In this document: positions 37,003 through 37,480 of the stretch, in pieces | How the letters are laid out: every line of letters starts with the position of its first letter | Position numbering within the stretch: the first letter of the stretch is position 1 | Assembly: GCA_022402535.1 (NCBI GenBank) | Contig: JAKRSD010000004.1 | Location: forward strand, 1 to 37,480 | DNA from: Flavobacteriales bacterium | GTDB taxonomy: Bacteria > Bacteroidota > Bacteroidia > CAIKAF01 | Direction: 5' to 3' | Length of the DNA stretch: 37,480 bases | Made by a program: the position numbers and the translations under genes | Notes under the pieces: generated by a model | Databases searched by the model: none | Seen by the model: the letters and a program-made list of their open reading frames with translations, nothing else | What the model was told of the DNA's origin: nothing

Positions 37003-37115
37003 AAAAAAAATCCCCGTCTTTACGATCGGGGATTTTAGTGATAAATAAGGGCTGAAGGTTAATTTTCTAAAGTATTTTAGGACTTCAGATGACTAGAGGC
37101 TGTTGTTTCTTTCAA
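37003..37115 (-). ncRNA. Putative small RNA, array unit 1
   Basis: On the minus strand GGATATTTG (37121-37129) is a -7-like box, a CTGTTG/CAACAG hairpin lies near the 5' end, and a CCCCG/CGGGG stem followed by eight T ends the unit. Predicted length is about 113 nt. This copy lacks the CCTCCTTA motif of the others and looks the most diverged. The 5' end is estimated. Confidence 0.42.
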
Positions 37116-37177
37116 CAGAACAAATATCCGCAGCCATACTTTGCTTTGGAACAGGAAAAACCCTGTATTTCAAATTC

Positions 37178-37293
37178 AAAAAAAATCCCTGTATGGAATA
37201 CAGGGATTGGGGAGATGAGGGGATTAAGGAGGTTAATTTTCAATAATCTTTTTAAAGGACGTCCTGATGACTAGAGGCTGTTGTTTCTTTCAA
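37178..37293 (-). ncRNA. Putative small RNA, array unit 2
   Basis: The box GGATATTTG is at 37299-37307 (minus strand). A 5' CTGTTG/CAACAG hairpin, a single-stranded C-rich stretch with AACCTCCTTAATCCCC, and a terminator ATCCCTGTAT/ATACAGGGAT with eight T follow. Predicted length is about 116 nt. The 5' end is estimated. Confidence 0.48.
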
Positions 37294-37358
37294 CAGGACA
37301 AATATCCATAGCCAGAATTTGCTTTAAAACAGGAAAAATCCTGTATTTTGAATTGGGT

Positions 37359-37480
37359 AAAAAAAATCCCTGCAGGGAATGCAGGGATTTGGGAGATGAG
37401 GGGATTAAGGAGGTTAACTTTCAACAATCTTTTTAAAGGACGTCCTGATGACTAGAGGCTGTTGTTTCTTTCAACAGGAC
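37359..37480 (-). ncRNA. Putative small RNA, array unit 3 (promoter box outside window)
   Basis: The same layout as unit 2: 5' CTGTTG/CAACAG hairpin, AACCTCCTTAATCCCC, and terminator ATCCCTGCA/TGCAGGGAT plus eight T (A run 37359-37366). Relative to unit 2 the stem has a T-A to C-G double change that keeps pairing. The upstream promoter box lies beyond the window. Confidence 0.45.

What the first reader, a model, noticed from the sequence alone, without database searches (positions are those of the whole stretch)
37003..37480. Tandem array of putative small RNA genes with co-varying terminators
Each ~180-bp unit, read on the minus strand, has a conserved -7-like box, a 5' hairpin and a Rho-independent terminator. 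Stem sequences differ between units (CCCCG/CGGGG, CTGTA/TACAG, CTGCA/TGCAG) but keep pairing, which argues for selection on RNA structure. The array continues past the window, so the copy number is unknown.
Basis: partly seen in the sequence, partly recalled or inferred. Interest (0 to 1): 0.8.

Follow-up and report, generated by a model that had tools for sequence, protein, structure and literature searches.

The report
Tandem activator-controlled small RNA genes
A bacterium of the Bacteroidota carries a row of at least four look-alike small RNA genes, each with what looks like its own switch and stop signal, plus a fifth copy elsewhere in the genome; this multi-copy arrangement is known from other bacteria, but this family of RNAs appears to be new.

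Summary
The array is real and continues past the window. The window ends at a 100-N assembly gap inside it; at least four units lie between yidC and a scramblase-like gene, all read on the minus strand. Each complete unit has a 16-bp palindrome ACAGG[G/A]TTTTTCCTGT, exactly 22 nt, a Bacteroidota-like -7 box, an RNA of about 111-117 nt, and a T8 terminator. The palindrome, centred near -42, suggests an activator site. Three more exact copies lie elsewhere in the genome (about 0.002 expected). One precedes an unlinked fifth unit of the same length that shares a 46-nt stretch with the array (0 of 500 shuffles) and faces the end of aroF, so it cannot be a leader. Between the most diverged units the spacer is random (4/22 identical), while palindrome (17/18), core RNA motif (11/13) and terminator persist. 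Only the terminator co-varies; the 5' hairpin does not, and RNA bodies fold no better than shuffles. No homologue was found in Rfam or in 15 relatives from five other genera. Best reading: a lineage-specific multicopy sRNA family under one activator, like LhrC, csRNAs and FopS in logic but a member of none. Targets and activator are unknown; no expression data exist.

The parts
37003..37116 (-). unit D, putative sRNA of 114 nt (start site inferred 5 nt after the -7 box)
   Evidence: start-site offset taken from flavobacterial promoters, -7 box at -12 to -5 (PMC9723704)
37003..37036 (-). terminator of D, CCCCG/CGGGG stem and T8
37057..37069 (-). conserved core of D (TAGAAAATTAACC)
37121..37128 (-). 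-7 box of D, GATATTTG
37151..37166 (-). palindrome of D, ACAGGGTTTTTCCTGT, putative activator site
37178..37294 (-). unit C, putative sRNA of 117 nt
37178..37208 (-). terminator of C, CTGTA/TACAG stem and T8
37231..37243 (-). conserved core of C (TTGAAAATTAACC)
37299..37306 (-). -7 box of C, GATATTTG
37329..37344 (-). palindrome of C, ACAGGATTTTTCCTGT
37359..37475 (-). unit B', putative sRNA of 117 nt; its promoter lies in the assembly gap beyond the window
37359..37390 (-). terminator of B', CTGCA/TGCAG stem and T8
37412..37424 (-). conserved core of B' (TTGAAAGTTAACC)
36381..36968 (-). neighbouring gene, 195-aa scramblase-like protein, downstream of unit D
   Evidence: PF03803 E=1.9e-18

Best explanation
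The locus is a tandem set of at least four paralogous small RNA genes. An unidentified activator probably binds the palindrome centred near -42 and recruits sigma-A RNA polymerase to a -7 box that has no good -33 element. Each unit would then make its own RNA of about 111-117 nt that ends at its own terminator. Several near-identical copies would raise the dose, and the diverged copies (A, D and the unlinked E) would spread the targets. The RNA most likely acts in trans by base pairing, through the largely unpaired conserved core UUGAAAGUUAACC and the C-rich stretch after it, possibly with one of the two RRM proteins encoded in the genome. Shown by sequence: repeats, palindrome, fixed spacing, terminators, conserved core, unlinked copy. 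Inferred: transcription, activator binding, trans action, base pairing. The confidence given is for activator-controlled sRNA genes; base pairing as the mode of action is about 0.5 on its own. Targets are unknown.
For: Each of the three array units with a complete promoter region (A, C, D) and unlinked E has the palindrome exactly 22 nt before an NANNTTTG box; the composite pattern occurs six times in the own genome and never in the reversed control, and beyond this genome only twice in 394 others of the class. Exact palindrome at three unlinked intergenic sites, about 0.002 expected. E: same length, same terminator type, 46-nt homology to B' (0 of 500 shuffles), convergent with aroF. Conserved islands between saturated spacers. 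Compensatory changes in the terminator. TAnnTTTG boxes are enriched before genes of this genome. Two RRM proteins present.
Against: No transcript data. No homologue in relatives. The -7 boxes lack the first T of TAnnTTTG. E scores weakly with the covariance model built from the array (23.2 bits, E 0.75), and it reaches clear shuffle significance only against B'; against A, C and D 13, 54 and 5 of 500 shuffles do as well. No target stood out in a sample of about 430 kb or in a genome-wide search for the complement of the core.
Confidence: 0.72

Rival explanations
1. Same sRNA genes, but the RNAs work as sponges: the repeated GUUGAAAG motif and the C-rich tract bind a protein such as an RRM protein, and multiple copies titrate it.
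For: GUUGAAAG occurs twice in B' (start and core); body no more structured than shuffles; two RRM_1 proteins in the genome; no target enrichment.
Against: The 5' copy of the motif is absent from A and E; the linker differs between units, which a sponge would not need; no direct evidence for protein binding.
Confidence: 0.2
2. Tandem leaders or attenuators: read-through from upstream is stopped by serial terminators that control the scramblase-like gene in cis.
For: All terminators lie on the strand of and upstream of the scramblase-like gene.
Against: E is not upstream of any gene; it ends at the tail of convergent aroF. Each unit has its own palindrome and -7 box. No conserved antiterminator fold; bodies fold like shuffles.
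Confidence: 0.06
3. Non-functional tandem duplication of intergenic DNA downstream of yidC, with terminators kept by chance.
For: B' and C are 95% identical, so the array is partly recent; absent in relatives.
Against: Diverged units keep palindrome, spacing, core and terminator while the spacer is random (4/22 between A and E); compensatory terminator changes; unlinked E.
Confidence: 0.08
4. A DNA decoy array: clustered palindromes titrate a transcription factor, and the RNA is incidental.
For: The palindrome is the best conserved element.
Against: Does not explain the conserved core, terminators, RNA length and palindrome-to-box spacing.
Confidence: 0.03

Closest known systems
LhrC1-5 multicopy sRNAs, Listeria monocytogenes (PMC4132741)
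   Same: Several homologous sRNAs whose expression depends on one two-component system (LisRK); C/U-rich motifs including a single-stranded stretch; terminator. That some copies lie in tandem is from memory.
   Different: Different phylum, no Rfam match here, no UCCC motif repeated in loop A, linker and terminator loop; LhrC blocks a Shine-Dalgarno site, whereas Shine-Dalgarno motifs are not enriched before genes of this genome.
csRNAs of the CiaRH regulon, Streptococcus (PMC3091779)
   Same: Same gene anatomy: regulator site at fixed distance from the promoter, short RNA, terminator; the regulator also controls protein genes.
   Different: The CiaR site is a TTTAAG repeat, here an ACAGG-N6-CCTGT palindrome; csRNAs carry sequences complementary to Shine-Dalgarno sites or start codons.
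FopS / GibS sRNAs, Bacteroides thetaiotaomicron (PMC11697453)
   Same: Multicopy sRNA family in the same phylum with a shared unpaired motif and a terminator; partner RbpB is an RNA-binding protein, and RRM proteins exist here too (that RbpB is an RRM protein is from memory).
   Different: FopS has its R1 seed in the 5' single-stranded end and canonical sigma promoters; here the conserved core is internal and a palindrome accompanies the promoter; no Rfam match here.

Membership tests
Intrinsically terminated stand-alone sRNA gene | Own promoter-like sequence and own Rho-independent terminator | tested here: met
   (sequence level only)
Intrinsically terminated stand-alone sRNA gene | A discrete transcript | not testable with these tools
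   no expression data
Intrinsically terminated stand-alone sRNA gene | No conserved open reading frame | tested here: met
   short ORFs differ between units on both strands
LhrC | Rfam sequence/structure match | tested here: not met
LhrC | Three redundant CU-rich (UCCC) motifs in loop A, linker and terminator loop | tested here: not met
   C-rich linker only; not in D
csRNA (CiaR) | Two TTTAAG stretches as operator | tested here: not met
   operator is an inverted repeat ACAGG-N6-CCTGT
FopS | R1 seed in the 5' single-stranded end | tested here: inconclusive
   no Rfam match, but whether Rfam 15 holds the FopS model was not checked; conserved core here is internal

The most novel reading that the evidence does not exclude
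The sRNA array belongs to a membrane-damage or defence regulon: the same palindrome, at almost the same spacing, precedes a 232-aa protein with weak similarity to bacterial gasdermins, and a near-copy lies between a patatin phospholipase that matches defence-effector models and an alpha/beta hydrolase. The sRNAs would then be the post-transcriptional arm of a response that also switches on membrane-active effectors.
Probability: 0.1. Interest if true: 0.65.

Novelty: new member of a known kind. Interest (0 to 1): 0.42.

Why it matters
Few sRNA families are characterised in the Bacteroidota, and this phylum largely lacks Shine-Dalgarno sites, so how C-rich sRNAs would act there is open. A family of at least five paralogues, with a defined operator, a short conserved core and diverged linkers, is a compact case for testing dose against target diversification, and its operator points to an unidentified regulator.

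Tried and rejected
Homologues by DNA in 60 relatives and the whole order held: only 24-46-nt chance or terminator-like hits. Covariance-model hits in relatives, best 3.8e-5 in L145: the inspected ones were 3' ends of protein genes plus their terminators, rejected. Own-genome hit C17:71739: end of a coding gene, rejected. Orthologous array after yidC in relatives: absent. Rfam: nothing at gathering threshold except tRNAs; sub-threshold hits differ from unit to unit. Viral contigs: none. Coding reading: no conserved ORF. Targets: complement of the core is no more frequent than its reversed control; duplex energies over 329 sampled start regions no better than shuffled RNAs. Autoregulated CRP-family activator: none of three clear CRP-type genes lies at a listed palindrome. 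Structure of the 232-aa protein: pLDDT 37.8, unusable, so no fold search was run. A text search for the palindrome as a known binding site gave nothing relevant among the listed papers.

Full report
1. What is there. The window is contig 24, positions 1-37480, of a 3.41-Mb genome. It ends at a run of 100 N, an assembly gap inside the array, so the copy number is unknown. Read on the minus strand, the order is yidC with its own terminator, unit A, the promoter part of unit B, the gap, the RNA part of a unit (B'), unit C, unit D, then a 195-aa scramblase-like gene. Unit spacing is 178-185 bp. B' and C are 95% identical over 122 nt; A and D are more diverged.

2. Anatomy of a unit. A 16-bp palindrome ACAGG[G/A]TTTTTCCTGT is followed after exactly 22 nt by GATATTTG, CATCTTTG or, in E, GACATTTG. 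In Flavobacterium psychrophilum the -7 box TAnnTTTG spans -12 to -5 (PMC9723704). With that offset the palindrome is centred near -42.5, about where class II activators bind in other bacteria (general knowledge), and the RNAs are 111-117 nt. In a sample of 328 genes from this genome TAnnTTTG is enriched just upstream of start codons, whereas Shine-Dalgarno motifs are not. A -33 TTG is weak in the genome's ordinary promoters too, so its lack here is only mild evidence for activator dependence. Each RNA ends in a G+C-rich stem and T8.

3. Is it more than chance? The exact palindrome occurs at three further unlinked places in the genome; about 0.002 exact copies are expected. The composite palindrome plus box pattern has six matches in the own genome and none for the reversed control; in 394 other genomes of the class there are two, both single. 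Comparing the most diverged units, A and E: palindrome 17/18 identical, spacer 4/22, 5' RNA 11/31, core 11/13, terminator 17/27. Islands that stay while the DNA between them has become random are what purifying selection leaves. E was found through its palindrome, so for E the palindrome identity is partly by selection; the spacing, box, core and terminator are not.

4. The unlinked unit E. It lies on contig 4, palindrome at 187522-187537 and RNA at about 187372-187487, minus strand. It has the same spacing, a similar RNA length (116 nt) and an ATCCCCGC/GCGGGGAT terminator with T8. Its body shares a 46-nt stretch with B' (GGAAGTCCCTAAAATCAGGTTGAATGTTGACCATCCTCTATCCC), reached by none of 500 shuffles; against A, C and D 13, 54 and 5 of 500 shuffles do as well. 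It ends at the stop codon of a convergent DAHP synthase gene, so it is not a leader. This is the strongest single argument for independent RNA genes.

5. Structure. The terminator stem shows three pairs with changes on both sides, reached by 7 of 500 shuffles; slid controls give none. The sample is four units, and compensation is expected of any terminator under selection. The 5' hairpin shows no covariation and, if the start site is right, its first two bases are not transcribed. Without the terminator, z-scores lie between -1.6 and +0.8. What is conserved in the body is sequence: UUGAAARUURACC and a C-rich linker that is mostly unpaired.

6. Distribution. DNA and covariance-model searches of all 15 other genomes held for the family, which is also the whole order held, gave no homologue, and the yidC downstream regions contain no array. 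No second species of the genus is held. The family is therefore lineage-specific as far as can be seen, or evolves too fast for these tools. Rfam has no match, and one viral-collection scan none.

7. Mechanism. The best reading is an activator-switched multicopy sRNA family acting in trans. Shown: the DNA features above. Inferred: transcription, activator, trans action. The core is the best candidate for a seed, because it is the internal RNA segment best kept in all five units. Target searches did not support a particular target, so base pairing against protein sponge remains open. Two RRM_1 proteins exist in the genome; RbpB of B. thetaiotaomicron, which binds FopS sRNAs, is a precedent (PMC11697453).

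8. Comparison. In logic this matches LhrC (PMC4132741), the csRNAs, which were found by the same signature of regulator site, spaced promoter and terminator (PMC3091779), and FopS. It belongs to none of them by the features tested; for FopS the test is incomplete. It is filed as a new member of a known kind, multicopy sRNA families under one regulator.

9. Regulon hint. The same palindrome, 23 nt before a perfect TACTTTTG box, precedes a 232-aa protein with weak gasdermin similarity; the structure model was unusable. This is a lead only.

Noticed in passing
L110:1501-2261 (contig 17 of the same genome, 54802-55562): Exact palindrome 23 nt before TACTTTTG, upstream of a 232-aa protein with weak similarity to bacterial gasdermins (PADLOC bGSDM E=4.8e-6, NCBIfam E=0.0045); no protease gene seen beside it.
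   Followed up: partly
L115:428-2366 (contig 23, 45512 region): One-mismatch palindrome between a divergent patatin phospholipase (PADLOC 'Effector, Phospholipase' models, E=1.1e-67) and an alpha/beta hydrolase.
   Followed up: partly
L109:1238-1516 (contig 12, 413291): Exact palindrome upstream of a 62-aa putative membrane protein, farther from its TACCTTTG box than in the array.
   Followed up: no
L100 and L102, downstream of yidC: Dense short palindromic repeats of the type GACGCATGGCAATGCGTC in two relatives, REP-like.
   Followed up: no
window 36332-36364: Perfect 16-bp inverted repeat after a tRNA gene, probably a terminator.
   Followed up: no
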